DNA of 64,000 bases, taken from Asterias amurensis. Lineage: Eukaryota > Echinodermata > Asteroidea > Forcipulatida > Asteriidae. Positions 14,776 through 47,595 of the stretch are shown here, piece by piece (the stretch's first letter is position 1; each line of letters begins with the position of its first letter). The stretch covers positions 3,053,001-3,117,000 of the forward strand of contig NC_092648.1 of assembly GCF_032118995.1 (NCBI RefSeq). The letters run 5' to 3'. The position numbers and the translations under genes are program-made. The notes under the pieces were generated by a model. It saw only the letters and a list, made by a program, of their open reading frames with translations. It made no database searches and had not been told where the DNA came from.

Positions 14776-14819
14776 GAACCAAGAATGGTGTACTTTATCT
14801 ACCATATGTTAATTGAATA

Positions 14820-18999: not shown

Positions 19000-19252
19000 G
19001 TCCGCCCATTTTTTGCCATATTTGGTGATGTTTTTGGTGCAGGAGAAGTTTCGGCTTTTATGCAAATGAGAACGGGTTGCGTGACCAAAAGGTCAGGGGC
19101 TGTCTTTTAAGCTTTCTTCTTGCTCTGCCGTGCGTGAAACTTGAACTTTTACTTAGAAACAATGCAAGGCATCGAAAAGTTTCCATGACTTTGCTCCAAA
19201 AAAATCGTGTTTTTATCGCAATACCGAGAGAAAACTACTGAAAGGTGCGACG
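19000..19252 (+). promoter_or_regulatory. Promoter and first-exon-like block, left copy
   Basis: A CArG-box motif CCATATTTGG (19016-19025) and an octamer ATGCAAAT (19060-19067) precede an exon-like stretch ending in a consensus donor (GACG|GTAAGT) at 19252/19253. The block has a clear inverted paralogue at 42355-42660. Similarity covers both motifs, their spacing, the exon-like stretch and about 45 bases past the donor. The only ATG in the exon opens a nine-codon frame and is not shared by the other copy, so the exon is probably non-coding. Transcription on the plus strand is inferred from the donor. Confidence 0.5.
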
Positions 19253-19860
19253 GTAAGTTGAGAATGTCCTTGTCTTATAAACTAAAGTGTGTAACTGTGA
19301 AAAGTATTTTTATTCGCCTATCTTGAACTGAAGGAGTTTGGGAAGTTTTCTTCCCCGAACGAAAGTAATGAGTTTTGAGACGCATGTGTTTTATGCGTTG
19401 TTCAGTCCACTTTATTAAAAATTGCAGGTGCGAATTACCGACTGGAGCATTTGTCTCCTTTTTTTCAAGAAGAAATTACTGTAAACCTTTTAGAGCATAG
19501 AGTACGGCTCGCGCTTGCCGGCCGTTTTTTTTATTTTTGTGACTCTGTCTGTAATCTGTTGTTAAAATAAAAAGTCAACTCAACGTCATGAGCCGATACT
19601 GATAGCAGAAAAGTTCCTCTATCCATGTCTAGGACTTTCGCTGACGAAAGTTAAACCTTTGTAGTAAAATAGTTAAGACTACTCTTTTTTCACATAAACA
19701 TTTTCCCAAAAAAGTAGTCGAATTAACGCAAAGTTCGTTTGCAGAACAAGCATAAAATTTGATAATGCAGTGCAAGTGCAACACACACTTGTGCTCATAC
19801 TTTTGGACTTTGATTTGAATTGCGCCCTCATTTGAATTGCGCCCTCATTTTGCATACGCT

Positions 19861-20425
19861 TGCATCTTTTAGACATGAAAATATTAATAACCAGGTCCTA
19901 GTGGTTAGTCCACTCTTATGTAACAAATCCCCAAACCTGCTGCTACAAATGCACTTAAATAAAGAGGTCTGAAGCAGTGCTTACATCTTTTAAACATGAA
20001 AATATAAACAACCAGGTCCCAGTGGTTAGTCCACTCTTATGTAACAACTCCCCAAGCCTGCTGCTACAAATGTACTAGAATAAAGAGGTCTGAAGCAGTG
20101 CTTGCATCTTTTAGACATGAAAATATTAACAACCAGGTCCTAGTGGTTAGTCCACTCTTATGTAACAACTCCCCAAACCTGCTGCTACAAATGTACTTGA
20201 ATAAAGAGGTCTGAAGCAGTGCTTTCATCTTTTAAACATGAAAATATAAGCAACCAGGTCCCAGTGGTTAGTCCACTCTTATGTAACAACTCCCCAAACC
20301 TGCTGCCACAAATGTACTTGAATAAAGAGGTCTGAATCAGTACTTGCATCTTTTTGACATGAAATCATTAACAACCAGGTCCTAGTGGTTAGTCCACTCT
20401 TATGTAACAACTCCCCAAACCTGCT
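19861..20425 (+). repeat. 121-bp tandem repeat, about 4.7 units
   Basis: Units begin GCATCTTTTAGACATGAAAA and include CCACTCTTATGTAACAACTC; starts near 19861, 19982, 20103, 20224 and 20345. The copies differ at only a few positions, so the array is young. Confidence 0.92.
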
Positions 20426-20689
20426 GCGTGGGGGATCGTCGCGAACCGTGCCGGAATGTTCCGAGAGCACACAAAAAATTCCGAACCGCTGTAGAGGTTA
20501 GTTTTTAGTGCCTTCCCTCAATCCACGACTCAGGGCATTGTTTGGCCCCCGATTTAGATTTATTTTTGATAATAAACAACACATTTTCCTCTTTTAATTC
20601 TCTTCTTTTTATTTAAATTTCTGTGAGCATTATGTCCATTTTCTATGGGGTGGGGGGGGGGAATTTGTGCTGAGCATGTACAACCCATT

Positions 20690-21640
20690 TCCACAGGCTG
20701 CAAACATTTTTTGTCAAGCAGATTTGTTAAGCAAACAAGCCATTCTTAATCTTATTGGTGCAAACTTAATTTTGCTAAGTAGATTTGCTAAGTGTGCAAG
20801 CCATTCTTACAGCGCCCAATTCCATAAATCCTGTAAGCACAAAAAACTTGTTTCACTTAGTTACCTGTTCATGTTTGCTGTGTTGTCATTTAGACTCTGC
20901 TAGGGGCAAAACGTCAGGCCATCAACTATTTTTTGCACAAAAAAACTTGTTACATTAAGTTTGTATAGTTTTGGCTGGTGCTTGACTGTATTTTTGCTTG
21001 GCAATGAAATTTGTCAAGCAGTATTTCTACTTATCAGCTCATTGACATAATGAAACTGGGCCCTGGTTGCAAACTAAATTTTGCTCAGCAGATTTTCTAA
21101 GTATTTAGGCTTAATCCATGTTGCTAGATGCAAACTTATTATTTTTTTCAAACATTTGCTAACCGTGTAAGTTGGCCTAATTCTTGTTGGTTCAAACCAA
21201 ATTTTACAGATCGGATGTGCTAAACGTGAAAGCCATTCTTGCTGGCTGCAAATTTTTTTAATAAAACCCATTCTTACTGGTTCCAAACATTTGTTTGTCA
21301 ATCAAATTGACTAAGTGTGCAAGCCATTCTTACAGCACCCAATTCCATAAAGCCTGTAAGGACAAAAATCTTGCTTAGCACAGAATAGTATTGCTTAGAA
21401 GATTGCTTGTTACCAGCCCAAGTTAAAGTAAGTTTGTATTGTTGTGGCTGTTGCCTCACTCAAATTTTGCTTAGCAAAGAAATTTAATTAGCACAACTTT
21501 ATGAAATTTGGCCCAGGCTGCAAAACAATTTTTTTCTTAGCAGATTGCTGAGTATTTAAGCCATTTTTGCTGATTGCAAATTAATTTTTGCTACACAGAT
21601 TTGCTAAGTATTCAAGAAATTGTTGCTAGATGCAAACAAG
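20690..21640. repeat. Irregular short repeats derived from the M2 element
   Basis: Roughly 60-80-base units with GCTAAGTGTGCAAGCCATTC and CAAATTTTGCTTAGCA recur through the stretch, interspersed with M2 pieces (CCCAATTCCATAAAGCCTGT). Confidence 0.65.
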
Positions 21641-21649
21641 AATGACGTT

Positions 21650-22430: not shown

Positions 22431-22436
22431 GTATAC

Positions 22437-22600
22437 AAATATTGACTGCTTCGAGTGCTATGGTTAAAACTGCGACTCCCAAGGTGATCCCCGGAGCATT
22501 CTAAATTCCCGAGGCGAAGTTGAGGGAAAATGGAACGCTACGGGGATCACCGAGGGAGTTGTAGTTTTAACCATACCATGAGTTAAAGCAGTCAATATTT
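22437..22600. mobile_element. Palindromic element with about 55-bp inverted ends
   Basis: Starts AATATTGACTGCTTCGAGTG and ends AGTTAAAGCAGTCAATATT; TATGGTTAAAACT and AGTTTTAACCATA pair, and GGTGATCCCC pairs with GGGGATCACC. No ORF. Confidence 0.8.
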
Positions 22601-22604
22601 GTTT

Positions 22605-23803: not shown

Positions 23804-24652
23804 TGCATTGCTGATGACTAAGGTGTTTCTTGGTCAAACCACTCTCTCCTTGCACACACTCACTCACATTTTACTACACACTCACATAAAGGAAACACCT
23901 AGATCCAGACATTCTTGGCTATTCTTATACCTTTTGGGCCAATGTATTCTATTGTTCGATTGATTTGGTTTATTGCTATTTATATACAAGGATACAATAG
24001 AAGTTGCCTTGTATCTTGTGCTTAAAAAAATTAAAACACAGACATTTTTGTATATAAAAAATCAGGAATACATTACATTAGACATTCAAGAGATAATAGT
24101 TTATACAATTGAAAATTACACCCATAAAACATGATAGTTATACAAATGACTGAATAGAATGACCACATTAAAAGATCTGACATTTTACTTTGTCCCAATT
24201 AAGAAAACAAATAATTGCTCATGTGTTGACAAAATAATGAATATTCACACACTATTTGCATAATTATCTGTAGACACATCTATGCAAAACTTCTAGAAAG
24301 TGGAAGTTTTAATGTAAATTTACTTGCAATTGGGCTTATGCCTGATTTTGTTTCAATTAATCTAAACCATTGAGTAAATGTATTTAATGAATGTCAACTT
24401 GGTCATGACAGGTTCAAAAATAGGTAAATACTTGCTACATTCTGTTATTGTTTTATAAAAAAAAAGGTTCTGCATTCTCATCAGCATTGATCAAGGCTGT
24501 ATTGTTTCAAGAAAAATGGAAAGTAAGCAAAAAATGCCTGTTGTTTTATTAGCTATAGATTATACAAAATAATTGTAATTGAAATACTGTCAGAAATATT
24601 TGTTTTTAACAAAAGGTTTGTTTGTTTGTTTGTTTTGTTCTCCTGCCTGCAG

Positions 24653-24741
24653 TTCTAGTCTCCAAAACATCAAGGTGTCAGCAATTGAATTTCTGAGACC
24701 CAATCATCAGCCTGGCAAAAAACTACCTTCTCTGTAAACAG
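24653..24741 (+). other. Exon-like module A, copy 1
   Basis: Acceptor CCTGCCTGCAG, about 89 bases, donor GTAAACAG|GTAAATTGA. Copies: 25136-25231, 26989-27088, 28863-28952, 30389-30468, 30987-31084 and, inverted, 38679-38764. Splice signals are kept across copies while the interior drifts and contains stops in all frames, which suits a non-coding exon. On the opposite strand three copies (1-3) share an open stretch with FEPTGPSPSES, most simply explained by shared descent. Confidence 0.45.
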
Positions 24742-25135
24742 GTAAATTGAAGCCCTTACAGTCTCAATTCCTTCTTCAATATCCAAAGTGAATGATTCAG
24801 AAGGACTTGGGCCAGTAGGCTCAAATAACAATTGCTTATTACAGGGTCTCATTCCAATCTTATAAAGTAAACCAATTTGGATTAGAGTGACAAAAACTCA
24901 AGCAAACTGTTTGACCTCCCCCTCCAATCAATGTTGCTTAAAAAGTCTTGATATGCAATAGTTCCTCAGAATAGTTTTATAAATTGTTGGTGTTCTGGAA
25001 GTAGGCCTAAGTGAAAGCAATTTTTTGAAAGTAATTATTTGAAGTCCACTGCTTGTTTTTGTTACAGATTGGCTTGCTATATCCAAAGATGTCTACACTT
25101 CAAATGTGTATTTGTTTTGTTTTTTCTGCCTGCAG

Positions 25136-25231
25136 CTCTGGTCTCCAAACTTCAATGTGTCAACATTTGAATATCTGAGACCCACTTATCATCATCAACC
25201 TGGCATCGAAAACTACCTTCTCTGTAACCAG
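25136..25231 (+). other. Exon-like module A, copy 2
   Basis: Acceptor TGCCTGCAG and donor AACCAG|GTAAAT kept. It lies 483 bases after copy 1, with a partial B module (from 25068) between them. Confidence 0.45.
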
Positions 25232-25973
25232 GTAAATTGAAGCCCTTACAATCCCAATTCCTTCTTCAGTATCCAAAATGAGGGATTCAGAAGGACTTGG
25301 GCCAGTAGGCTCAAATGATGGCTGCATATCACAGGGTCTCATTCCAATCTTTAAAAATGTACAACCAACTTGGAGTTGAGTGACATAGAAGAAGAGGACA
25401 TGGAAAGGTTGAGGCCACATGCTAGCAAATATTCTTAACAATGTTGATCTTTTTGCATCACTTCCACCTTAAAATGATACCTCTAAATTACAATAAAACC
25501 CCAAGAGGGGGATGGGGGCACATGGCACTCTCTACCATATTTGTGCCTGTAGCTTTTAATTAGTATTTCACTCAAAGTGAGAGGGAATGTAAATTTTAGG
25601 AAAAAAATAAAAGTTTCCAAACAAAAATGTGACAGCCCCCCTTCCCTGTAAGTCAGAAAGGGCCCAGTCCTGATAGGGTTAAGTGAAACTTGTTTGAGGG
25701 AAGTATCAGTTTGACCCAAATCAAGCCCCCGGAACTCAACACTGAACTTTAAATATTGGTTTGTTTTAACTGATAATAAAGTTCACACCAACAAAAAAAA
25801 CTCAAGCAAACTGTTTGGCCTTCCCCCTCCAATCAGTGTTGCTTAAAAAAATCTTGATCGGCACAAGTTCCTCAGAATAGTTTTTCCAAATTAATTGTGT
25901 TCTGTAAGTATGTTTTATAAAAATTGAAAGCAATGAAGGTAATTATTTGAAGTCTACTGTTTTTCTTTTACAG

Positions 25974-26067
25974 GCAGGCTTGCTATATCCAAAGATGTCT
26001 ACACTTCAACAAGTAGATGTCTAATAAACTGGCCTGTGACTAAGGAACTGCACTTTTTAATTGAAAG
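25974..26067 (+). other. Exon-like module B (left arm)
   Basis: Acceptor TTCTTTTACAG, then GGCTTGCTATATCCAAAGAT..., donor TTGAAAG|GTAAATTT. Related copies begin at 25068, 28157, 29645 and, more diverged, 32061; the 28157 and 29645 copies have lost a recognisable donor. The B core (TCCAAAGATGTCTAC) also occurs on the minus strand at about 15.7, 16.3, 16.97 and 39.93 kb. Confidence 0.4.
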
Positions 26068-26521
26068 GTAAATTTGCAAAAAAAAAAGCAAATTATAAAT
26101 CTTAGTTAGGCCTGATACATACCTTACACAAAATCAAAGAGCGATTTGCCTTTACATTTTAATGCTGTCTGGTACAATGACGTGCTTGGTTACAAGTCAC
26201 CACTTTAGTTTGAATTCCTCAGAGTATAGAGACAGTTGCTACATGTAAGTAAAATGATTCGGGGCAAGCTCTTGCTTTTGCTTTTGAATGGATTTGTATG
26301 GCACAATGGTACCAGGGTCTGCTCATCTGGAGGTTGCTATACAAAAGCTTGCTCTGAATCATGTGACATATTAACTGTCTCTGTAGTCTAAGGAATTCAA
26401 ATGTAAGCGGTAACTTTTGTGACTAAGCAAGCCATAATTGTACCAGTCATTATTCAAATCTAACTCGCAAATGGCTTATAAATGGGAAGTGTTTTGGGTT
26501 GAACTAAGAATAATTTACTTG

Positions 26522-26720
26522 AGCGGAATTCGAACCAAATGCCTCCAGGTTAATGTGCTAGCGCTCTACTCTACCAACTGAAGTATACTAGCCTGATGCT
26601 GGGGGTCTTCCTATTTTGTCGATATCTTTGTTTGCGGTGCAAGTAAGAGGCCACACAACCATTAACTGCCATTTAGCCAGGGATCACACCCAAGTTTACG
26701 ATACAACCTGGGAAGTAGCA
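26522..26720 (-). mobile_element. tRNA-like SINE in the A/B unit
   Basis: Minus strand: CAGTTGGTAGAGTAGAGCGC (A box) and GGTTCGAATTCC (B box), preceded by GACAAAATAGGAAGACCCCC. Copies in later units at 28432-28560 and 29915-30085; related tail-only pieces at 46435-46520 (+) and 40190-40260. Carried along by the unit duplication. Confidence 0.7.
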
Positions 26721-26988
26721 GCCAGGGGATCACCTTGGAGGAATTCAAATTTTAATTTCAAACATCAAGTTGTAAACAACGTGGCAAGCTGACAGGGTGT
26801 ATTTGCAATCTCCTCAGATTGGATGACAGCTGTTGTGTTTCAGAAAAAGTGGAAAGTGAGAAAAATACTACCTCATATTTTTTAGTAAATACATACCCGT
26901 TTCTTGTTTATATAAAAATGATTTTTGTGGGGCTAGAAATATTTGTTTTTAACAAAAAGGTGTGTTTGTTTTGTTTTCTTGCCTGCAG

Positions 26989-27088
26989 CTCAAGTCTCCC
27001 AAACATCAACAATTGTCAACAAATGAATATCTAGGACCTACTTATCATCATACAGCCTGGCAAAAAGAACTACCTTCTCTGTAAACAG
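26989..27088 (+). other. Exon-like module A, copy 3
   Basis: Acceptor TTGCCTGCAG and donor AAACAG|GTAAAT kept; about 1.85 kb after copy 2. Confidence 0.45.
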
Positions 27089-28862
27089 GTAAATTGAAGC
27101 CCTTACATTCCCAATTCCTTCTTCAATATCCAAAATGAGGGATTCAGAAGGACTTGGGCCAGTTGGCTCAAATAACAGTTGCTTCTTACAGGGTCTCATT
27201 TCAATCTTATAAAGTACAACCAATTTGGAGTGGAGTGTCATATAGAAGAAGAGAAGAAAGGTTGAGGCTGGCAAGAAATTTTAATAACTGCTCCTTTTGC
27301 ATCACTTTTTTTTTGGGGGGGGGGGGGCATGATACCCTCTACTATACTTTTGCCTGTTGCTTTTTTGCTGCATCTGACCACCACCAAATTTTATGACTTT
27401 AACCAATAATTATTTAGGGTCATCTTGTAAACAAAATACGAAGGTCCTCTGTTACCATTTGACCTTGGGTGAAATTATGTGAAAAAACAATTGTAGTTAT
27501 TTTGGGGGTCTTTCACCATAAACTTGCTACATGTTTGTTTAGTTTTCCCAAGAAAGTGGAAGCGATTTGTCACACGATAGACTCATAATTAACAGCACAC
27601 ACAACAGTTGTCAATTAACTATCAAAGGTGCCCTTTAATTAAATGTCTGAAACTATATCTAACAAATCCCATATCTATGTCATCATGCAGAACATTTGGT
27701 GAAACGTACAATTATAAAAACAACTCTAGAACTTAATACAATGGGGGGCAACTATGTGCCCCTCCCCTCTCCCCTGTCCCATGTAGGTCTGAAAAAGCCA
27801 ATCCTGTTAGGGTTAAGTGAAACTTGTTTGAGGGAAGAATCAGTTTGACCAAAATCAAGCCTACAAAAATGAATTTGACCTCCCCCTTCCAATCACTTTT
27901 GCTTATTTTGATTGCAGCAACTAAATCAATCTTATATAGGATTTGAGGCATTGCATGGAGATTTATTTTGTTTGCGATAACACCATGTGTGTATCTACTT
28001 CAATCTTAATTTATAAATCAATCTTCATCTGCAAAAGTTTATCTGAATAGTTTTCCAACTGTTGGTGTTCTGAAAGTATTTTTGATAACAATTCTAAAGT
28101 GAAAGTAATTCATTTGAAAATATTTACTTGAAGTCTACTGTTGGTTTTTGTTACAGCAAGGCTTGCAATCTCCAAAGATGTCTACACTTCAACACGTAGA
28201 TGTCTAAGAAACTGGCCTGTGATTAAGTAACTGCACTTTTTAGTAAAAAGAACGTTTGCTAAAGAGCAAATTTGTAATATATACACCCAAATTGAGATTC
28301 TAGTTGGGCCTCATGTGTACTTTACACAAAATCAATTAATGGGAAGCAAGCTCACATGATGCAAATAATCAGAAAGCATTTTTTTTGTTTATTAAAAGTT
28401 TGGGGTTGAACAAAGCAAAATTGACAGAGCGGGATTCAAAACTATGGCCTCCACTTTACCCTATCAACTGAGATTTGTAGCCTGATGCCGGGGGTCTTCC
28501 TATTTTGTCAATATCTTTGTTTGGGGTGAAAGTAAAAAGCCATACAACCGTTAACTGCCGTGTAGCCAGGGATCACATCCAAGTTTACGATACAACCTGG
28601 GAAGTGGCAGCCAGGGGATCACCTTGAAGGGATTTGAATTTTCATGTCAAATATCAAGTTGTAACAACGCGGCAAGCTGTCTGGGTACATGTGCATCTCC
28701 TCAGATTTGATCAGCTCTAGTGTTTCAGAAAAAGTAGAAAATGAGAAAAATGGTACTCTTAGTTATAAGTCCTGTTTTCTTGTTTATACAGAATGACTTT
28801 GGTTGGGCTTGAAATATTTGTTTTTAACAGAAGATGTGTTTGTTTTGTTTACCTGTCTGCAG

Positions 28863-28952
28863 CTCTAGTCTCCAAAACTTCAAGTAAATGTCTGATGAGA
28901 CCAATTTGTCATCATACAGCTTGACAAAAAGAGCTACCTTCTCTGTAAACAG
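28863..28952 (+). other. Exon-like module A, copy 4
   Basis: Acceptor CTGTCTGCAG and a stronger donor AAACAG|GTAAGT. A palindromic element is inserted 16 bases after the exon-like end (28968-29161), at the same site as in copy 5. Confidence 0.45.
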
Positions 28953-28967
28953 GTAAGTTGAAAGCCG

Positions 28968-29161
28968 AAAGCCTGGTTCATACTTCCCGCAAATGCAAAT
29001 GCGATACGAATGTTAACGTCACAAGTTCACAAGGAATATTTCGAAGCAGTGGAGTTTTGCTCAACTCTCTTGCAAATATCGCAGCAAAAACAGAGTTAGG
29101 ACATCAAATTCTCATCAACTTCGCATCGCTTTCGCATTCGCAGGAAGTTTGAGCCAGGCTT
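28968..29161. mobile_element. Palindromic element inserted after module A copy 4
   Basis: Inverted ends AAGCCTGGTTCATACTTCC and GGAAGTTTGAGCCAGGCTT. Related insertion at the same site at 30483-30627. Confidence 0.8.
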
Positions 29162-30388
29162 AACAGTCCCAAAACCTTTTTCAGTTTCCAAAGTGAAGGA
29201 TTCAGAATGATTTTGGCAAGTAGGCTCTAATGAAAAGTACCCTTTCAGTGATTAAAGTTTGAAACTACATCAATGTCATCATGCAGGGCTTGATAAAATG
29301 TACAATTGTGGCAAATTTCATAAAAATAACTCATGAGTTTTGGAAAATCCAAAGGGGTCACTATGTTTCCCTTTCCCTCAAAGTCTGAAAGGGCCCGGTA
29401 CTTAAACACTTACAACACTATACTTAAAATGTAGGTTTGTTTAAACTGATAAAAAAGTTCACACCAAAAAAAAAAAACTCAAGCAAACTGTTCAGGAATT
29501 TGAGCTCCCCCTCCAATCACTGTTGCTTAAAATAATCTTGATCTGCACAATCTTGATCTGGAAGTATTTTTTATAAAAATTTCAAAGTAAAAGCAGTTTG
29601 TTTGAAAGTAAACATTTGAAGTCTACTGTTCGTTTTTATTACAGGTAGGCTTGCTATATCCAAAGGTGTCTACATGTCAACAAGTAGATAATAAACAAGC
29701 CTGTGATCAAGGAACTGCACTTTTTAATAAAGAGATAAATTTCCTAAAAATATTTATTAGTAATTTTTAGTCTCAAATATAGAGCTCCTAGTTAGGCCTG
29801 GTGCATACATTACACGAAACCAAATAGTGGAAAGCAAGTTAACATGATGCAAATAATCAGTACGTGTTGTTTAATAAATTTTGGGTTGTACTATAATAAA
29901 ACAAATTACTAGAGCAGGATTTGAACCAATGACCTCCAGATAAATGTGCTAGCTCCGCTCTACAAACTGAACTATAATAGGCTGATGCTGGGGGTCTACC
30001 TATTTTGTCGATCTTAGTTTGGGGTGAAAGTAAGAAGCCATACAACCGTTAACTGCCATGTAGCCAGGGATCACACCCAAGTTTAAGATACCAACCTGGA
30101 AAGGAGCAGCCATGGGATCACCTTGAAGGGATTTGATTTTTCATTTCAAAGATCAAGTTGTAAACAACCCTGGCAAGCTGGCCGGGTACAATTGCAATCT
30201 CCTTAGATCGGATGACAGCTCCAGTGCTTCAGGAAAAGTAGAAAGAGAGAAAATTATTATTCTATATTTTTTAGTGATACATACCTATTTTCTTGTTTAT
30301 TCAGAATGACTTTGGTTGGGCTTGGAATATTTGCTTGAATTATCCTGTGTAACAATAAGGTATGTTTGTTTTGTTTTTCTGCCTGTAG

Positions 30389-30468
30389 TTCCAGTCTCCA
30401 AGTAAATATCTGATGAGATCAAGTTCATCATACAGCTTTGTAAAAAGAACTACCTTCTCTGTAAACAG
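30389..30468 (+). other. Exon-like module A, copy 5
   Basis: Acceptor TGCCTGTAG and donor AAACAG|GTAAGT. It shares the intronic palindromic insertion with copy 4, so the two are sister duplicates. Confidence 0.45.
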
Positions 30469-30482
30469 GTAAGTTGAAACCA

Positions 30483-30627
30483 TCAAGCCTGGTTCATCTT
30501 TTATGCAAACGCAAAATAAATGTTGACGTCACAAATTTGCAGCGAATAATTCGCAAATCGCAGCAAAAACGAGTTGTGACGTCAAATTCGTGTCAACTTC
30601 GCATTCGCAGGAAGTTTGAACCTGGCT
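30483..30627. mobile_element. Palindromic element inserted after module A copy 5
   Basis: Ends AAGCCTGGTTCAT and AGGAAGTTTGAACCTGGCT. Shorter than the copy in unit 4 but at the same position. Confidence 0.78.
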
Positions 30628-30986
30628 AAACAGTCCCAATTCATTCTTCAGTATCTTGAGTGAAGGATTCAGAAAGTAACTATACCCATGTCATCATGCA
30701 GAGCTTGGTAAAAATGTACAAATTATTTCATAAAAGTAACTCTAAAACTTTTGAAAATCAAAGGGGGCCACTATGAATCCCCTGCCCTCTCTGTCCTGTA
30801 AATCTGAGGGCCCAGTCTAGGTTCTGTGTAACTTGTTTCAGGGAAGAATTAATTCAAAAGTTCACACAAAAACCTCCAGCAAACTGTTGTAGGAATTTGA
30901 TTTAATCACTGTTGCTTTTCTTTCGTTATAGGCTAGAAATATTTGTTTTAACAAAAAGGTGTGTTTGTTTTTTCCTTCCTGCGCAG

Positions 30987-31084
30987 CTCCAGTGTCCACA
31001 ACTTCAACATGTCAACAAGTAAATGTCTGAGACCCACTTATCATCATACAGCCTGGCATAAAGAACCACCTTTCCTGTAAACAG
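30987..31084 (+). other. Exon-like module A, copy 6
   Basis: Acceptor TTCCTGCGCAG. The donor reads AAACAG|GCGAGT, a GC donor in place of GT. This copy lies in the part of the left arm that is mirrored at 36.8-38.8 kb. Confidence 0.4.
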
Positions 31085-31825
31085 GCGAGTTGAAACCCTT
31101 ACAGTCCCAATTCCTTCACAAGTATCCAAAGTGAAGGATTTAGAAGGACTTGGGCCAGTATAGGGTAAATTAACAGTTGCATATCACAGGGCCTCTTTCG
31201 AATCTTAAAAAGTACAACCAATTTGGATTAGAGTGATATAAGAAGAGGTTATGGAAAGACTGAGGCCACATGCTGGCAGGAACTTCTAATAATTGCTCTT
31301 TTTGCATCACTTCCACCTTGTATGACAACTCTAAATTAAATTAAAACACTATCGAAATGGGGGGAGGGGCATGGTGTCCTTTAAAAGCAATAATTATTTA
31401 GGCTCATCTTGTAAACAAAACATCGAGTCGACTGGCCCATGGCAACCATTATTTTGTTTGACCTAGGGTGAAATTATTTACAAAACAATTGTAGTTACTT
31501 TTAGGGTCTTTAACTACAATTAACAAACTGTCCACATGCTTTTTTAGTTTTATCAAGAAAATGGAAGTGATTTGTCACATGACAGTGTTATCATGCATTG
31601 TGGGAATTCAAAATGACCACTATATGCAGTGACCATCTTTATTTTTAAAATTTCAGCATGTACTTTGGGTTTCTAACTCAAAAGAAATACAATCAAAATA
31701 TCATCAGTTTGGTTGCACTCTCTTCCCTCAAAGATAACAGGAATTTCAATCATTAAGAGGAAATACAAAAGACAAAGTTTTATTATCTAAACACAATGTG
31801 TGTGCCCACAACAATGGGCAGTTTA

Positions 31826-31970
31826 TTACAAATGGGAGACTTTGGAATGCTAAGTGGCAGCAGACTTACAAGGTAAATTTCCATTGCTTACGTAGTTCTG
31901 AGCATGCGCACATTACCGAGAGTAATGGATTTTACCTGGTAAGTCTGCTGCCACCAAGGGTCCCAAAAGT
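31826..31970. mobile_element. 145-bp palindromic element (family M3)
   Basis: Ends include GGCAGCAGACTTACAAGGTA and TACCTGGTAAGTCTGCTGCC. A second copy lies at 57645-57785 in a HECTD1 intron. Confidence 0.8.
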
Positions 31971-32141
31971 ATCCCATTACTCTTTAATAATTAAATGTAT
32001 GAAGTGAAAGCAATTCATTTGAAAGTAATTCTTTTTAGTCAACTGTTTGTTTTGTTACAGGACGACTTCCGACGTTCCACATTGCAACACTTCACTTTTG
32101 TTTGAGCAGTCCTCCTGTTACCTTTTTCTCTTGTGCTTTAG

Positions 32142-32468
32142 AAAATCAGTTTTGTTAATTATTATTGTTCCTTTCTGCTTTATTTTGCTGTTATTGAAAG
32201 TTTCGTTGCAATTTGTTTGTGTTTGATGTTTGTCTGTCTGTGTGCGCGCTCACATTTATTGGTTCGAGAATGCCCTACGCTAAGCGCATTTTCAACCGCC
32301 CAAGAGACGATTTCGGCGGTTGGTAGACCTAAGCGGCAGATACGCGGTCGATTCGGGCATTCTGTTAAATTCACCACGATATTAAGGCCTAATAGTTTTC
32401 AACCTCTACTCCAGTTATCAACTTGGACCTGCATCGGGACAGCAAAATGTCCGTCACCTCTGGAATTG
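32142..32468 (+). other. Exon-like module D, left arm
   Basis: Acceptor CTCTTGTGCTTTAG and donor GAATTG|GTGAGT, both conserved with the right-arm copy at 37252-37537. An ATG at 32270 opens a frame that stops after 18 codons, whereas the right copy stays open to its donor. Just upstream (32061-32141) is a diverged B-like piece. Confidence 0.4.
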
Positions 32469-32773
32469 GTGAGTTTCTGTTTTCAATTTTGATTAAGGAA
32501 CTGAACTCTTTAGTTAAAGGTATATTCCTAAAAAGCAAGTTCTATTAGTCATAATATGAACACCTAAAAAGGTTCCTAGTTGCACCTGATGTATACTTTA
32601 CACAAAATCAAGAAATGCAAAGCAAATTGCAAATAATCAGTGTTTATTGTTTTTAATTGTTATAGCTTGATTTGATACCTTTCAATACTTTGAGAGCAGG
32701 GCCATTCCAGTTTTTAATTATCTCTGCAAACTGTTTTGCTAATCACACTTTTTGGCATTCATACAATTTTCAG

Positions 32774-32900
32774 AGCCAGCTGTTCCCCAAAATCAAATGC
32801 AATGGGAATCAGCTCTGCTGACATCGCTGAAGGCTACAAAGTACAAGGCATATGAAATATCAGCATCTAATCATCAGGACACCCTAGATGTTACTTGTAG
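32774..32900 (+). other. Exon-like module C, left arm
   Basis: Acceptor ACAATTTTCAG, then AGCCAGCTGTTCCCCAAAAT. Homologous to minus-strand copies starting at 37055, 15054 and 9957. In the phase set by module D this copy hits a stop early; the right copy does not. The 3' end is uncertain. Confidence 0.4.
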
Positions 32901-33091
32901 AAATCTTAATAAAGAACAATCCAATAATTTTTCTTAAATTTTGAAAACAACTCTAGATGTGTCAGTAACATAATTAAGTTTTTCCAATAAACAAACGGTT
33001 AATATTTCTGTAAATAAGTGCACCATTGCAAGCAAGCACACATGCGATTTTTTGCGCTACTTGGCAATCTTAGGGCCTTGGTTGTGCGGCA

Positions 33092-33165
33092 CTAACCCTA
33101 ACCCTATTAACCCTATTAACCCTATTAACCCTATTAACCCTATTAACCCTATTAACCCTTACTAA
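33092..33165 (+). repeat. Telomere-like array, left arm
   Basis: Starts CCCTAACCC and continues as CCCTATTAA repeats of 9 bp, about seven units. It mirrors the array at 36588-36705. Confidence 0.85.
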
Positions 33166-33959
33166 TTGTTTGGAATACGGAAGTACAAAGCATGGAACAT
33201 TCCAGACTTATTGCGAAAAGGGACTTGGACACATGCACGTGGCATGTGGGGTCTCAGCCCGGCCGGTTGTTTCACATCTGGTGGTTGATCTTAAAGGTGC
33301 ACTCCGGTGTTATCACAAACTATGGTTGACCAAACGGGTTAGTTCCTAGTCTAGGCCATGTGACTAGGGGCCGCGTTCGGGAGTAGGGGGTGCCCCCCTC
33401 AGACGGGGGCATGGACCTGGGCGCTGATTTAATATAGTATGAGGGCCCTTATGATCTCCCGGGCGTGTCGGGGCTGGTATCCTGGGACCTGCACGTGGTG
33501 GCCCTGCTTTTAACTAGCCTTACCAGGATGATATAGGCAAAATTATGAACCAAATAAATTAAAGGCTTGCGATGGTGCATTTATACAATACCTTACCTTT
33601 ACTCTCACAAGTGTAATATCCAATGTAATACTGGCACAACTTTTTAGGTCATCAATTTTCTAATTGTGGTTTTTCAGCTGTACTGTTTGAAAATAGGTTA
33701 AAGTACATTGCTGTGCCAGAAATTCACTCTTTTGCTCATTAAATTTTGGTTGCATGCCTGTTGCAACTAGTCAACAGAAAAAAACATGTTTGAGTTTACT
33801 CTTTGGCTCTCACGATCAATAAAAATAGAGAGGAAAAGGGCGTTTGAGAGAACTTGAGAAAAAAATAAAATAAGTGCATTGTCATGAATACATCTGAAGT
33901 CTTGTTTTGTGTAAAAAAATGCTCAATAAGTTTATATATTCATGTTGAGTCTGTCTTTT

Positions 33960-34330
33960 TATTTAATCTTGTTCTTTTGACTGATTTGGGACCATTTTAT
34001 TTTTCGGTCAATTTTCGCAAATGGGCCGTTTTGAGCCAGGATCTTTGGTTTAAAAAAACTGCAAGGGGTTAAACTTGTTCTTTAGAATGATTTGGGACCA
34101 TTTTATTAGTTGGCCAATTTTACAAAATGGGCCTTTTTGAGCCAGGATTTGGGGTTTAAAAAACTGCAAGGGGTTAAAACTTGTTCTTTTGAATGATTTG
34201 GGACCATTTTGTTAGTTGGCCAATTTCACAAAATGGGCCTTTTTAAGTCAGGATTTGGGGTTTAAAAAACTGCAAGGGGTTAAACTTGTTCCTTTGACTG
34301 ATTCTGGACCATTATTATTATCAGTCAATT
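33960..34330 (+). repeat. About 105-bp tandem repeat, left side of the loop
   Basis: About 3.5 units, each with GCAAGGGGTTAAAC (34061, 34166, 34273) and GATTTGGGACCATTTT. They face inverted copies at 34650-35400. Confidence 0.85.
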
Positions 34331-34414
34331 TAATGAGCCTTTTTGAGTGGATGGATATCGGAGGGGGGTTCATTAGGGCAGTTTTTACATCAAAAAATGT
34401 AAAGTTTAGTCAAA

Positions 34415-34608
34415 AGAGGGCGCTGTAACAAACACAAATGCATTTTTTCCCCATCATTTTGATTGCCTAAAAGTTTTTTGTTATAGCGCCCTCTAGTGGC
34501 CGTGAGTACTCCGCATCAAAAAGTTCCTAAAAGTTTTTGCTATAGCGCCCTCTTGAGTGCGGAAGTACTTAGCATCCCTAGTACCTTGTAAAGCGCCCTC
34601 CCCGGCTT
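34415..34608. promoter_or_regulatory. Four CTCF-like motifs in the palindrome's central loop
   Basis: AGAGGGCGCT occurs at 34415-34424 (+), and reverse-strand versions start at 34485, 34544 and 34592. The second reads GGCCACTAGAGGGCGCT on the minus strand, which fits the animal CTCF core (CCASYAGRKGGCRS type) very well. The others share only the GAGGGCGC part. One points right and three point left. Binding is inference; the motif is also common in repeats. Confidence 0.45.
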
Positions 34609-34649
34609 GAAGTTCATGGCACACCATCGGCCAAGGCCGTATTCAAAAT

Positions 34650-35400
34650 CATTCAAAGGGACAAGTTTAACCCCTTGCAGTTTTTTAAACCAAAACTGCT
34701 GGCTCAAAAAGGCCCATTTTTAAAAATTGGCCAACAAATAAAATGGTTCCAAATCATTCTAAAGAACAAGTTTAACCCCTTGCAGTTTTTTAAACCCCAA
34801 ATCCTAGCTCAAAAAGGCCCATTTTGTAAAATTGGCCAGCTAATAAAATGGTCCTAAATCATTCAAAAGAACAAGTTTAACCCCTTGCAGCTTTTTAAAC
34901 ACAAAATCCTAGCTCAAAAAGGCCCGTTTTTAAAAATTGGCCAAAAATAAAATGGTCCCCAAATCATTCTACAGAACAAGTTTAACCCCTTGCAGTTTTT
35001 TAAACCCCAAATCTTGGCTCAAAAAGGCCCATTTTGTAAAATTGGCCAACTAATAAAATGGTCCCAAATCTCTCTAAAGAACAAGTTTAACCCCTTGCAG
35101 TTTTTAAACCCCAAATCCTAGCTCAAAAAAGCCCATTATTAAAAATTGGCCAAAAAATAAAATGGTCCCAAATCATTCAAAAGAACAAGTTTAACCACCT
35201 TACAGTTTTTTAAACCTAAAATCCGGGCTCAAAAAAGCCCACTATTAAAAATTGGCCAACTAATAAAATGATCCCAAATCATTCAAGAGAAAAATTTTAA
35301 CCCCATGCAGTTTTTTAAACCAAAGATCCTGGCTCAAAATGGCCCATTTGCGAAAATTGACCGAAAAATAAAATGATCCCAAATCAGTCAAAAGAACAAG
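34650..35400 (-). repeat. About 105-bp tandem repeat, right side of the loop
   Basis: Seven units with ACCCCTTGCAG-type motifs near 34670, 34775, 34880, 34985, 35090, 35194 and 35300, inverted relative to the left block, which has about half as many. Confidence 0.85.
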
Positions 35401-36217
35401 ATTAAATAAAAAGACAGACTCAACATGAATATATAAACTTATTGGTTTTTATTGAGCAATTTTTTACACAAAACAAGACTTCAGATGTATTCATGACAAT
35501 GCACTTATTTTATTTTTTTCTCAAGTTCTCTCAAACGCCCTTTTCCTCTCTATTTTTATTGATCGTGAGAGCCAAAGAGTAAACTCAAACACGTTTTTTT
35601 TCTAATGACTAGTTGCAACAGGCATGCAACCAAAATTTAATGAGCAAAAGAGTGAATTTCTGGCACAGCAATGTACTTTAACCTATTTTCAAACAGTACA
35701 GCTGAAAAACCACAATTAGAAAATTGATGACCTAAAAAGTTGTGCCAGTATTACATTGGATATTACACTTGTGAGAGTAAAGGTAAGGTATTGTATAAAT
35801 GCACCATTGCAAGCGTTTAATTTATTTGGTTCATAATTTTGCCTATATCATCCTGGTAAGGCTAGTTAAAAGCAGGGCCACCACGTGCAGGTCCCAGGAT
35901 ACCAGCCCCGACACGCCCGGGAGATCATAAGGGCCCTCATACTATATTAAATCAGCGCCCAGGTCCATGCCCCCGTCTGAGGGGGGCACCCCCTACTCCC
36001 GAACGCGGTCCCTAGACACATGGCCTAGACTAGGAACTAACCCGTTTGGTCAACCATAGTTTGTGATAACACCAAATGATGCACCTTTAAGATCAACCAC
36101 CAGATGTGAAACAACCGGCCGGGCTGAGACCCCACATGCCACGTGCATGTGTCCAAGTCCCTTTTCGCAATAAGTCTGGAATGTCCCATGCTTTGTACTT
36201 CCGTATTCCAAACAATG

Positions 36218-36263
36218 TTAGGGTTAAGGTTAAGGTTAGGGTTAGGGTTAGGGTTAGGGTTAG
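36218..36263 (+). repeat. TTAGGG-type array, right arm
   Basis: About seven units of TTAGGG or TTAAGG, the canonical metazoan telomere hexamer on the plus strand, in the first of two tandem right-arm blocks. Confidence 0.85.
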
Positions 36264-36587
36264 TACCAAGACATCCCTAAAACACGCCCAGGAGATCATC
36301 AGGTCCCTCATACTCTAGTTAAAGAGCGCCCAGGTCCATGCCCCCGTCTGAGGGGGGCACCCCCTACTCCCGAACGCGGCCCCTAGTCACATGGCCTAGA
36401 CTAGGAACTAACCCGTTTGGTCAACCATAGTTTGTGATAACACCGGAGTGCACCTTTAAGATCAACCACCAGATGTGAAACAACCGGCCGGGCTGAGACC
36501 CCACATGCCACGTGCATGTGTCCAAGTCCCTTTTCGCAATAAGTCTGGAATGTCCCATGCTTTGTACTTCCGTATTCCAAACAATTA

Positions 36588-36705
36588 GTAAGGGTTAATA
36601 GGGTTAATAGGGTTAATAGGGTTAATAGGGTTAATAGGGTTAATAGGGTTAACATGGTTAATAGGGTTAATAGGGTTAATAGGGTTAATAGGGTTAGGGT
36701 TAGTG
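36588..36705 (+). repeat. 9-bp telomere-like array, right arm
   Basis: Around a dozen units of TTAATAGGG with one TTAACATGG variant, ending in GGGTTAGGGTTAG. The 9-mer looks like the telomere hexamer with three extra bases. Confidence 0.85.
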
Positions 36706-36959
36706 CCGCACCACCAAGGCCCTAAGATCGCCAAGTAGCGCATAAAAACGCATAATATGTGCTTGCTTGCAATGGTGTACTTATTTACAGAAATGTTTTA
36801 AGTAGTTTAAAAACTTAATTGAAAAACACCATTAAAACATGTGAGGCCTAATAACACATCTAGAATAAATTTTAAAATTTAAGAAAAATTACAGGGTGGT
36901 TCATTCATAACTTGACAATGAACAGCTATAGTGTGTTATGATTACTAGATGCTGATGTT

Positions 36960-37410
36960 TCATAAAAGTTGCTTTCCCTTATGTGTAGCCTTCAGCGATG
37001 TCAGTAGAGCTGATTCCCTCTGCACTTGATTTGGGGAACAGCTGCATCTCTGGCTCTGAAAGATTAAGTTCAAAGTCTCAACAAAGCATTCTGATTATTT
37101 GCATCATGTTAATTTGCTTTCCATTTCTTGGTTTTGTGTAAAGCCTAACTTAAGCGGCTATTTAGGTGTAAATATGACTAATTGCCTTTTAGAAATGTAC
37201 CTTTTACTAGAGAGTGCAGTTACTAAATCAAAATTGAAAGTAGAAACTCACCAATTCCAGAAGTGACAGACAGTTGCTGCCCCGAACCAGGTCCATGTTG
37301 ACAACAGGAGTAGAGGTTGAAAACCTAAAGATCGTGGGGACTTTAACATAATGCCCGAATCGGCCGCGTATCTGCCGCTGTTGGTTGGAAGTGCGCTTAG
37401 GGCGAGGCAT
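36960..37410 (-). CDS. Possible 84-residue basic peptide from modules D and C of the right arm
   Basis: From ATG 37410-37408 module D is open to its donor at 37252 (53 codons starting MPRPKRTSNQQRQIRGRFGH). Module C begins at 37055 after acceptor TAATCTTTCAG and continues in the same phase (SQRCSCSPNQVQRESALLTS...) to a stop at 36960-36962. The product would be short, basic at its N-terminus and of unknown function. I recognise no family. The left copy does not keep this frame and no selection test was possible, so chance opening of a non-coding exon is at least as likely. Confidence 0.2.
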
Positions 37411-37537
37411 TCTCGAACCAATAAATGTGAGCACGCATACAGACAGGAAAACATCAACAAACACAAACAAATTGCAAGCAAAACTTTAAATAACAGCAAA
37501 ATGAAGCAGAGATTAAAAAATTAACAAAACTGATTTT
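37252..37537 (-). other. Exon-like module D, right arm
   Basis: Acceptor GAGCTTTAG and donor GAATTG|GTGAGT, mirrored in 32142-32468. It is preceded on the minus strand by a B-like piece near 37.55-37.63 kb (acceptor TTGTTACAG) matching 32041-32110. Confidence 0.4.
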
Positions 37538-38678
37538 CTAAAGCTCAAAAAAAAGGTAACACTAGGACTGCTCAAATAAACAGTGAAGTGTATTTTTCCA
37601 TGTGGAATGTCGGAAGCCTTCCTGTAACAAAACAAATAGTAGACAAGAATTAATTTCAAATGAAATGGTTTCACCTAAGATTTGTTTTAAAAAATACCTT
37701 CAGAACACCAATATTGAGACAAGGAAAGATTATTCTGACGAATTTGTGCACATCAGGATTATTTTAAGCAACAGTGATTGGAGGTGAAGTCAAATCCTAA
37801 AACAGTTTGCTTGAGGTTTTTGTGTTGGTGTTTAAACAAACCAAATTTTTTAATCAGAATTTTGTTAGTCAAATTGATTCTTCCATCAAACAGTTATAGT
37901 TTAAAAAATGGATCATTTAAGGAGACCATTAAATGACCACTGTTGTTGGCACTGTAATTATTAAGCGTCTATTACTTTTTTGTTGTTGAAAAAAATCACT
38001 TTTTATCCCATCTTAAAATATTGACATTCCCGTTAACTTTGAGAGCCAACATGGGTGGACTGTAATGCCTAATTGATAATTTTGCTAGTATTTCTTTGAC
38101 AGTTTGAACCCCTCAGTACATGCTGAAATAAAAAAAATCTAAGATGGACGCTGCATATGTTTGCCATTTTGAATTCCTGCAATGCATGGAAAGTTTGTAA
38201 ATTGTGGTAAACAAGCCCAAAATAACTACAGTTGTTGTTATCATTTCACACAGGCAAACAATGAATGGTTGCCATGGTACCAGCTGACCTTACTATTTTC
38301 TGACAATAAGTAACTAATGGTAAAAGTCATAAGATGTGGTGGTCAGATGCATACAAAAAAGCTACAGGCACAAATTTGGTACTGGGATCATGTCCCCCCC
38401 CCCAATAGGGTTTTAATGTAATTTAGAGGATGGCGCTTCAAGGTGGAAATGATGAGAAAAGAGAATTTATTATTAAGAATCTTGGCCAGCATGTGGCAAC
38501 AATCTTTCCATTACCTCTTCTTCTTTGTCACTCCATAAATTGGTTGTACTTTATTAGATTGGAATGTGACCTGTTGTGACATGCAACTGTCATTTGAGCC
38601 TGAACTGTCCCAAGTCCTTCTGAATCCTTCACTTTGGATACTGAAGAAGGGGTTGAGATTGTAAGGGTCTCAATTTAC

Positions 38679-38764
38679 CTGTTCACAGAGAATGTTGTTC
38701 TTTATGCCAGGTTACGTATGATGATAAGTGGGTCTCAGACATGTTGATCTTTAGGAGATTGGAG
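38679..38764 (-). other. Exon-like module A, right-arm inverted copy
   Basis: Minus-strand counterpart of copy 6: acceptor TTGCCAGCAG, donor AACAG|GTAAATTGAG. It is the only A module found in the right arm, against six in the left. Confidence 0.45.
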
Positions 38765-39164
38765 CTGCTGGCAAACAAAAGAAACACATTTTTAGTTTAA
38801 AACAAATATTTCTACACCTTACTTAATTAATCATAGGCCCACGAAAATAATTCTTCATATGGTCAAGACTACAACAGGTATGTATATCTAAAGACTACAG
38901 ATGCATTTTCCATCACTTTCTATTTTTCCTGAAGCAAAACAGCTGTCATCAATTCTGAGGAGGGTGCAAAAGTTATTATTTATATATCTAAGAAAATCTC
39001 TGCTTGTTTCACTTTTGTAACAATTGTACACCAGCTGCTGTATTCCAGCAACAAAGGATATAAAATATTACTTTTTCTTTGGAATAAATTCTCTATTGAA
39101 GGAATAATTTTGTTCTTCTCCTGTATCTTTCACAATGTAAATTATGGCATTGTATCGACTGTGC

Positions 39165-40662: not shown

Positions 40663-40798
40663 GGATAACTTTCCGTGCCACCACTTTTTTCACTCATTTT
40701 TACAAAAAGGGATATCTCATTAATAAGTAAAGTTAGATACTATTATTATTTCATATCGAATAAAAAAGTGGTGGCGCCATACGTAAACTTTTCCAAGG
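40663..40798. mobile_element. MITE M4, second copy
   Basis: Same ends and interior (GGGATATCTCATTAA) as 23036-23166, in opposite orientation; the left end has lost the ATGGCG segment. Confidence 0.85.
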
Positions 40799-40956
40799 AA
40801 AATTCCTCCATAGGTATAGTATGACTGCAAATGGCAAGATTTCTAAAACTAAACGGTGTACCACGCCCCAACTGGGTCTTAATAACTCAACACAATTACA
40901 AAAAATCCCTCAACTATTTCCAGTATCACATTCATTCTCCATGTTCATTCATACTA

Positions 40957-41981
40957 CAGTCGTTTGACCAGTTCTGGATCACTTCTTGAATTCACATGGT
41001 TTTTTGTTGCAATCTCTTTGATATCTTAAACATAAAAGTTTATCAGTTTACCTAAACATGTCATAAAACTCACCAAGTATTCACTGACAAAAAAAGATTA
41101 GTTCTTTTGAAGAGGCTTTGAGAAAAGTATCGTCACCTGTTTGACCAGTTCAGGATCAGTTGAATCTATTCTGAATCAGTAGAGTGCCCTTTATTGCAAA
41201 CCCATACTCCCATTCATAAAACTGTCTCTCAAGGACACGACACATCAGAGGTGTGTTGGCATGGACTTGGACTTCCTTTCTTTAGTGAATGTCATGCAAG
41301 TGTCTTCAATAGCAGCGCAAAAACCCAGCGACAAAACCACAAAACAACAGCAAAGGCAAATGAAAAAGTGAAGCGAACCTAAAAAGCATTATTGACCCCC
41401 TCCAAGCTTAATTTTCTCACAAAATAAAAAATCTACAAGAATTTGTTGAAGTAATGTTTCTCAAAATCAACTAAATAAACTTTCTACTGCAGTAGTATGA
41501 TTTTACCAGACTTAGTAAGTTAGTGCGGCACCATTTGACGCAATGAGATGTTAAGTGATCCCGAACTGGTCAAGGGTAAGTTGCCCCCTCAAAGAAGATT
41601 TTGATAACTTTGTCTCCTCAAAGAAACAAGATGACTGCACAGTAATTACACGAATGTTTTTTACACATTCTTATCATTTTACATAAATATTTTTTGCCCC
41701 TGCACTCCAATTCTAAAGGTAAGAAGTTTTAACAGTGTTTTTCAACCAACATTTTTCAACAAAAAAATGACAAATTTTGCAGACAACCTTCAGGAAAACG
41801 GCCATAATTTATTTGCTGATGATGTTTGGCACCTTATTTTGGGTTTGTTGGTTTAATGGATGTTAATCTTCACATTTATCAACAGAAATTGGTAATAATG
41901 AGAAATTATATAATTATTTGGTTATTGCAAAGTTGAAGTGATCCCGAACTGGTCAATGATCCCGAACTGGTCAAATGACTG
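40957..41981. mobile_element. Non-autonomous Tc1/mariner-like element, 1,025 bp, TA target duplication
   Basis: Ends CAGTCGTTTGACCAGTTC and GAACTGGTCAAATGACTG are inverted, begin with CAGT and are flanked by TA at 40955-40956 and 41982-41983, as in Tc1/mariner. The right end carries GATCCCGAACTGGTCAA twice. Internal sub-end copies lie near 41143 and 41558. No transposase frame. Confidence 0.8.
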
Positions 41982-42359
41982 TACTCTACACGCAAAATAT
42001 AGCACATGGGTTGGTTGGTTTTTGGTTGGAGGGTCGAGAGCAGAGTAATTTAGCCTGCCTTGAATGGAGAAGGCCCTACGAATTTTCCCCAAATATTGGC
42101 TGGCTTGGAGCACAAGTACGGTTTACCTTATTATAGAGTACGAGGAGTTGGTTTAAAAATACCATATACTTACTTCTTCTTAGCAAAACCGCTTTACTAG
42201 TAAAAATTCTACCTGGCAATTTTACAATAATAAAACATGACGTCTGGGGACACACAGCAGCTATACAGACTGACATCCTTCCGTCCGGGGGTCTCAAAAC
42301 ATTTTTTGGGTTCCTCAGTGAAGAAAACACACAAATTTCTCTCATTTTTTGTGAATGAA

Positions 42360-42660
42360 AAGCCTATTCAACACTTTAGTTTATAACACAAGACAATTCT
42401 CAACTCACCATTACACTTTTCCAGCAGTTTTCCTTCAGAACTCCGGTGAAAACTCGAAGTTTTTTGGAGCAAAATACACGAAGAATGTTTCATGTCGTCT
42501 ATTTTGTCTTCGAAGTAAACACACATGGCCGACAGGCTGCGCAGACGACCTCTCCCCCCTCTCTCCTCAAATCACGCCACCTTGAACCTCATTTGCATAA
42601 CAAAAAAGCCGTCTTCTGGTTGGCACAAAGTTACCACCATATTTGGAAATACGGAACAGG
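42360..42660 (-). promoter_or_regulatory. Promoter and first-exon-like block, right inverted copy
   Basis: Inverted paralogue of 19000-19310. It carries CCATATTTGG at 42637-42646 and ATTTGCAT at 42591-42598, with a 56-bp span against 52 bp on the left. The exon-like stretch ends at 42409 with donor ATG|GTGAGT, followed by TGAGAAT and TTATAAACTAAAGTGT shared with the left copy. The donor points the unit leftward, toward the centre of the palindrome. Confidence 0.5.
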
Positions 42661-42689
42661 CTATTTTGTTGACAGGGGTGGTTAGAGCT

Positions 42690-44225: not shown

Positions 44226-47595
<3,370 letters not shown>

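What the first reader, a model, noticed from the sequence alone, without database searches (positions are those of the whole stretch)
19000..42660. Palindromic locus with two inward-facing paralogous transcription-unit-like arms
Two homologous blocks with promoter-like motifs, an exon-like stretch and a splice donor lie in opposite orientation at 19.0 and 42.6 kb. Both point to a shared centre at 34.5 kb. Module order inward is alike in both arms: A, B-like, D, C, then the foldback. If both are transcribed, their RNAs would be complementary over kilobases and could form long double-stranded RNA. I know of no described locus like this, though I cannot search.
Basis: partly seen in the sequence, partly recalled or inferred. 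Interest (0 to 1): 0.75.

Follow-up and report, generated by a model that had tools for sequence, protein, structure and literature searches.

The report
Palindromic noncoding-RNA locus family in starfish
A starfish chromosome carries a palindrome whose two arms look like noncoding-RNA genes pointing at each other, and the same layout recurs at about 22 places in the genome, each built around an almost unchanging structured sequence that matches no catalogued RNA family; no expression data were available.

Summary
The palindrome is real and is one of a family. The window lies in a 491.5-Mb, 23-contig genome that fits the starfish Asterias amurensis. Blocks at 19.0 and 42.6 kb are inverted paralogues, each with an octamer ATGCAAAT about 190 bp before a splice donor. 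Both point to a centre at 34.5 kb flanked by inverted arms (92.7% identical inside, about 68% outside). Genome searches found about 22 such loci on 8 chromosomes; the 25 outer blocks that could be assigned and the 42 exon-module matches listed all point inward. Inside each arm lies a ~370-nt domain with 63 nt that do not vary in 26 aligned copies (next longest run 9). A 59-mer from it has 43 copies, 42 exact; 21 pairs face each other 2-8 kb apart. At least 21 diverged copies lie elsewhere. Across 15 diverse members the domain shows compensatory base pairing on the inward strand (51 double-change cells against 17.6 +/- 3.5 shuffled). Rfam has no match above threshold. Best reading: inward, spliced noncoding transcription units ending in an uncatalogued structured RNA. 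Transcription was not testable here.

The parts
18714..19491 (+). Outer block X: promoter-like region, exon 1 and splice donor (intron begins about 19253); octamer ATGCAAAT at 19060-19067
   Evidence: matches in loci A, B, D and C1:231830-; octamer 192 bp before donor
42237..43025 (-). Outer block Y: paralogous promoter-like region, exon 1, splice donor (about 42408); octamer at 42591-42598
24624..31247 (+). Left-arm modules, each with a noncoding exon of 80-103 nt ending AG|GTAA or similar (24624-24894, 25103-25397, 26957-27253, 28831-28986, 30357-30498, 30956-31247; fragments 29107-29241, 30598-30676)
   Evidence: profile search; exon lengths and stops
38514..38791 (-). Right-arm single copy of the same exon module
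30934..34347 (+). Left palindrome arm
35018..38814 (-). Right palindrome arm
33015..33583 (+). Structured element, left copy, with inverted ends 33015-33033 and 33565-33583
35796..36783 (-). Structured element, right copy (longer: holds telomere-like arrays and a second partial copy at 36283-36533 that lacks the 63-nt run)
33217..33582 (+). Conserved domain used for the structure test
33468..33530 (+). 63-nt invariant run, left copy
35849..35911 (-). 63-nt invariant run, right copy
33099..33159 (+). Telomere-like TAACCCTAT array inside the element (absent from locus D)
36217..36696 (-). Telomere-like arrays of the right copy (36217-36263 and 36591-36696)
33963..34347 (-). ~105-bp minisatellite, left of centre
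34646..35405 (+). ~105-bp minisatellite, right of centre, opposite orientation
34348..34645 (.). Central spacer with GCGCCCTCTAGTGG at 34486 (resembles a CTCF site, from memory); related spacer in A and B, not D

Best explanation
The region is one of about 22 dispersed palindromic loci that descend from an old inverted pair of noncoding transcription units. Shown from sequence: octamer-bearing promoter-like block, exon 1 with splice donor, short exons without a common reading frame, and an inward-pointing ~370-nt domain in each arm whose base pairing is conserved on the inward strand. Inferred: RNA polymerase II transcribes inward from the outer block(s), the RNA is spliced, and its 3' part delivers the structured domain, which acts in trans as a sequence- and structure-specific RNA with the 63-nt run as contact or active site. 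The inverted layout comes from the founding duplication and allows exchange between arms and between loci. Double-stranded RNA from overlapping or read-through transcripts may occur but is probably not the main selected product.
For: Family and inward layout. Octamer 186-195 bp before a GGT[AG]AGTT donor in 10 of 11 distinct outer blocks examined (in A_Y the octamer is ATGCTAAT; B_Z has the octamer but no donor match). 22 exons read cleanly of 25 module hits, 54-103 nt, lengths in all three classes modulo 3 (11, 2, 9), no frame open in all; the 20 longest of 191 ORFs give no Pfam match above cut-off. 63-nt run invariant in 26 copies; outside it 157 of 389 columns are invariant and pairwise identity averages 0.829. 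Fold on 15 members: 97.4% of cells paired vs 92.8 +/- 0.4, 15 pairs and 51 cells with double changes vs 9.1 +/- 1.4 and 17.6 +/- 3.5, 0 of 500 shuffles each; slid controls 33-53% paired; G-U 268 cells vs A-C 9; consensus energy sense -55.9, antisense -23.4, 60 column shuffles -13.0 +/- 4.0. Exchange: 30772-34347 is 95.8% identical to C1:4706001-4709601 (fetched edge); D arms 99.3% alike inside.
Against: No transcript was seen. RNAalifold's covariation term is near zero for the palindromic copies (-0.66) and a penalty (+5.78) for the diverse set. Of the pair-count measures, further pair types reach the observed value in 37 of 500 shuffles, and the tool warns that related sequences can beat shuffles without structure. 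The fold was derived from the alignment it was counted on, on the sense strand, which favours G-U over A-C. The 63 nt alone fold no better than shuffles. Partial second copies in the arms lack the 63-nt run. At C4 no second outer block or right-arm exon module was found. ORFs of 45 aa or more number 191 vs a mean of 143 in 20 base shuffles. The exon modules are conserved beyond the exon in most copies.
Confidence: 0.5

Rival explanations
1. Hairpin / double-stranded RNA locus: convergent or read-through transcripts pair between the arms and are cut into small RNAs, as in hairpin-RNA genes; the inverted pair itself is what is selected.
For: At 21 of 22 loci two copies face each other 1977-7780 bp apart; the 59-mer is intact on the C4 right arm, where no promoter block was found; the inner arms of the window are 92.7% alike over 1259 bp.
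Against: The run is identical between loci, not merely matched within a locus; own-arm identity is never the highest in 4 alpha/beta loci; sub-words of the run match 21 outside sites, which on reading are homologues of the domain, not separate targets. Asterias rubens showed a single Ago1-like Argonaute and somatic TE-derived piRNAs (PMC6085071, passages).
Confidence: 0.2
2. Selfish repeat: a large palindromic or foldback-like mobile element, or its debris, with the conserved domain as a cis-acting part; only copies with an intact domain spread.
For: Dispersed on 8 chromosomes; inverted ends bound the domain; tandem repeats inside inverted arms recall foldback elements (from memory); inter-locus copying.
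Against: Homology runs past the inverted ends: the palindromic copies share a near-identical 5' flank (AACATTTCTGTAAA or close) and 13 of 20 outside regions share 150 bp or more of 3' flank with another, so the ends are not insertion borders. No transposon protein among the 20 longest ORFs. G-U-rich pairing fits RNA better than DNA.
Confidence: 0.22
3. Old segmental duplicates with no present function; the conservation is only recent copying and gene conversion.
For: Exchange between loci and arms happens.
Against: A 63-nt run identical in copies as low as 60% alike elsewhere would need conversion tracts confined to that run; exon-limited matches in D and compensatory changes.
Confidence: 0.07
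4. Palindromic assembly artefact.
For: None found.
Against: Arms differ by 7-32%; many loci with different spacers; HiFi assembly.
Confidence: 0.01

Closest known systems
Hairpin-RNA (hpRNA) genes of flies (from memory)
   Same: promoter, inverted arms, spacer; noncoding
   Different: the conserved run is fixed across loci; each arm has its own conserved fold; no separate target found
Sex-chromosome ampliconic palindromes (general knowledge; search listing)
   Same: inverted gene pairs with arm-to-arm exchange
   Different: arms are 68-93% alike and loci lie on 8 chromosomes; the reported A. amurensis sex region is chromosome 10, 7-12 Mb (PMC11757944, abstract), our C10 locus is at 3.36 Mb if numbering agrees
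Foldback / TIR (MITE-like) DNA elements (from memory)
   Same: inverted ends, tandem repeats within inverted arms, dispersed copies
   Different: homology continues past the inverted ends; target duplications not examined
snoRNA host genes with tandem exon-intron units (from memory)
   Same: tandem noncoding exons in a host-like layout
   Different: no snoRNA match above Rfam's threshold, only weak ones
Telomerase RNA (from memory)
   Same: telomere-like CTAACCC next to a structured RNA
   Different: about 64 copies, arrays of variable length, absent in locus D

Membership tests
Hairpin-RNA (hpRNA) gene | long inverted repeat able to form a duplex | tested here: met
Hairpin-RNA (hpRNA) gene | small RNAs cut from the duplex | not testable with these tools
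   no small-RNA reads
Hairpin-RNA (hpRNA) gene | complementary target elsewhere | tested here: inconclusive
   3 sub-words of the 63 nt searched with up to 2 mismatches; the 21 extra sites read as homologues of the domain; other arm sequence not searched for targets
TIR DNA transposon / MITE | terminal inverted repeats | tested here: met
TIR DNA transposon / MITE | homology stops at the inverted repeats | tested here: not met
   shared flanks beyond them
TIR DNA transposon / MITE | target-site duplication | not tested
   not examined
Rfam-catalogued RNA family | match above gathering score | tested here: not met
   (only a tRNA at 59005, outside the locus, passes)
Multi-exon lncRNA gene | no conserved reading frame | tested here: met
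   (Pfam on 20 of 191 ORFs)
Multi-exon lncRNA gene | spliced transcripts | not testable with these tools
   only splice-site conservation seen
Conserved structured RNA | compensatory changes beyond controls | tested here: met
   with the caveat that the fold came from the same alignment
Ampliconic sex-chromosome palindrome | arms over 99% identical on a sex chromosome | tested here: not met
   arm identity; the chromosomal part rests on numbering

The most novel reading that the evidence does not exclude
A previously undescribed trans-acting structured RNA of starfish, made from about 22 loci of which 21 are inward-facing pairs: the pair, not the single gene, is the unit that is kept, and its 63-nt heart is so constrained that 42 of 43 copies are identical in the searched 59-mer.
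Probability: 0.25. Interest if true: 0.9.

Novelty: new variant of a known kind. Interest (0 to 1): 0.72.

Why it matters
A multi-copy element whose 63-nt heart does not vary among 26 aligned copies, some only 60% alike elsewhere, points to a strong and unknown function; redundant copies would normally decay. The recurring inward pairing gives a natural test of whether palindromes are kept for arm-to-arm repair, for double-stranded RNA, or by descent alone. It is testable in a tractable egg and embryo system.

Tried and rejected
Telomerase RNA: see Closest known systems. snoRNA host: no Rfam support. Protein gene: exon lengths and stops; Pfam on 20 of 191 ORFs of 45 aa or more (three sub-cut-off matches, best DUF1923 E 0.0015, 18.7 bits against 25). 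mRNA target of the 63 nt: the extra sites first looked like targets, but reading them showed homologues of the domain; in 3 of the 20 regions (L065, L067, L073) by eye only over its 3' part. Self-cleaving ribozyme, U12 intron and programmed-elimination ideas were weighed in thought only. Viral contigs: two exact patterns, no match. Central CTCF-like site: in W, A and B, not D, so not general. L005 was aligned in the wrong orientation and is not used from there; one search reads it correctly. A covariance model was not built (A4 has 444 columns, limit 400). No other species was searched for the domain.

Rows dropped: alignment A1 uses 26 of 33 core hits; left out were four partial hits without the 63-nt run (W_36584, A_39862, B_33732, L036_123), L040, and two L035 hits that repeat B. 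Alignment A3 uses 17 of 20 outside regions, A4 uses 15 members chosen for length. The inverted-end test uses 17 of 29 rows that have both ends, 13 distinct; rows with insertions or deletions and F- were left out.

Not found in print, by these searches only: (listings). PMC10625585 and PMC6085071 were seen as passages, PMC11757944 as abstract and outline; no paper was read whole.
Full report
What was claimed and whether it is there. All are present. The blocks match inverted at 68% over 244 bp (E 5.6e-22). The inner arms match at 92.7% over 1259 bp; similarity falls outward to 82, 76 and about 68%. The centre holds ~105-bp minisatellites in opposite orientation.

Where it is. The window is C1:3053001-3117000 of a genome of 491,506,623 bases in 23 contigs; C1 has 38,009,675. 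This fits the A. amurensis HiFi/Hi-C assembly of 491.5 Mb, 22 chromosomes of 13.43 to 38.00 Mb (PMC10625585, passages). The species name is therefore inferred. Neighbours: an exon resembling enolase-phosphatase E1 at 44226 (PDB match E 0.0015) and an exon of a HECT-type ligase resembling TRIP12 at 55271-55972 (E 4.5e-8).

It is a family. The left block has 13 matches and the right block 21. A 59-mer from the arms has 43 copies with up to 3 mismatches: 42 exact, one with one mismatch; the reversed control has none. They fall in 22 loci: C1 (10), C2, C4, C6 (3), C8 (3), C10, C14, C16 (2). At 21 loci a forward copy is followed by a reverse copy 1977-7780 bp away, median 4180; C14 has one copy. 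together give 27 distinct outer blocks. I assigned 25 to a locus by distance (within about 27 kb): 6 loci have one on each side, 13 on one side, 3 none; all 25 point inward. Two (C1:3860421-, C1:4108342+) lie at no known locus. The exon module has 42 listed matches (40 of 119 candidates scored) in 18 of the 22 loci, all pointing inward. The tool gives repeat counts as lower bounds.

Transcription-unit features. Eleven distinct outer blocks were examined. In 10 an octamer lies 186-195 bp before a GGT[AG]AGTT donor (A_Y has ATGCTAAT); B_Z has the octamer but no donor match. In the window only the two blocks have such a pair within 180-200 bp. The exon module has a polypyrimidine tract, AG, mostly 80-103 nt and a GT donor. 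Of 25 hits in four loci 22 gave a clean exon of 54-103 nt; lengths modulo 3 are 0 in 11, 1 in 2 and 2 in 9, and no frame is open in all. In locus D four copies keep little beyond the exon and its splice sites, but in most others the neighbouring intron is conserved too. ORFs of 45 aa or more number 191 against a mean of 143 in 20 base shuffles, the longest 116 aa against a mean maximum of 122; the 20 longest have no Pfam match above cut-off.

The invariant run and its domain. In 26 of 33 core hits aligned (those dropped are named under Tried and rejected) the longest invariant run is 63 nt (33468-33530); the next is 9. Outside it 157 of 389 columns are invariant and pairwise identity averages 0.829, minimum 0.595, gaps counted as differences. 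Full copies fall into alpha, beta and gamma subtypes (about 93-100, 76-82 and 73-74% to the window copy); those aligned share the same 63 nt. Partial second copies in some arms lack the run. Sub-words of the run occur at 21 sites outside the palindromes (15 new, 6 more, none; reversed controls 0). Read in 20 regions, these proved to be diverged copies of the domain, three of them by eye only over its 3' part, so about 64 copies are known. No two outside sites form an inverted pair within 100 kb at that stringency.

Structure. On 15 diverse members (A4) the consensus fold has 69 pairs in 11 helices: 97.4% of cells paired against 92.8 +/- 0.4 in shuffles; 15 pairs and 51 cells with changes on both sides against 9.1 +/- 1.4 and 17.6 +/- 3.5, each 0 of 500; further pair types 50 against 46.4, reached by 37 of 500; sliding partners by 1-3 columns leaves 33-53% paired. 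Helix 9 has double changes in 6 of 7 pairs, helix 10 in 3 of 3 (but only 84% paired). G-U cells number 268 and A-C cells 9. Consensus energy is -55.9 sense, -23.4 antisense, -13.0 +/- 4.0 in 60 column shuffles. Against this: RNAalifold's covariation term is +5.78 on this set and -0.66 on the palindromic copies; the single window copy folds only modestly better than shuffles (z -1.95 sense, -0.43 antisense); the 63 nt alone do not; and the fold was derived from the alignment on which it was counted. The inverted ends pair at 231 of 247 positions in 13 distinct rows (17 of 29 rows used), slightly better than with shuffled partners (0.5% as good). Rfam gives no match in the locus above gathering score; weak ones were listed and set aside.

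How it probably works. I take the loci as inward noncoding transcription units whose RNA carries the structured domain. The 63 nt then act by sequence, which mere arm pairing would not require: in 4 alpha/beta loci the alpha arm is never closest to its own beta arm. The layout descends from an old inverted duplication; exchange continues, though unevenly: inside, D arms are 99.3% alike, W arms 98.1% (98.6% to B), A arms 84.4%, and the window's left arm is 95.8% identical to a locus 1.6 Mb away. At the C4 locus the right arm has the core but no outer block or exon module up to C4:452000, so some loci may have one unit only. Double-stranded RNA remains possible and would be easy to test.

What is not known. 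On rechecking, several counts were mended (octamer 10 of 11 blocks, subtype identities, flank sharing 13 of 20); the odds did not need to change.

Noticed in passing
10113-14788: About 4.6-kb array of a ~60-bp unit with longer periods of 90-330 bp and strong A-over-T skew.
   Followed up: no
40952-41984: 97.6% identical to a stretch of locus B (C1:1236830-1237861); holds a tandem of TGATCCCGAACTGGTCAA. Looks like a young repeat.
   Followed up: no
22435-22602, 23034-23169, 40660-40795, 43839-43894: Short self-complementary stretches; 23034-23169 and 40660-40795 are copies of one repeat (88%). The former gives a microRNA-model match far below cut-off (45 of 200 bits, E 3.5e-6).
   Followed up: no
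33099-33159 and 36591-36696: Nine-base telomere-like repeats (TAACCCTAT / AGGGTTAAT) inside the structured element, absent from locus D.
   Followed up: partly
59005-59075: tRNA match in Rfam (36.7 bits) that ARAGORN does not report; perhaps a tRNA-derived repeat.
   Followed up: no
44226 onward and 55271-55972: Exons resembling enolase-phosphatase E1 (+) and a TRIP12-like HECT ligase (-); the Y block lies head-to-head with the former.
   Followed up: partly
C1:3860421 (-) and C1:4108342 (+): Outer-block-like matches with no known 59-mer nearby; possible remnant loci.
   Followed up: no
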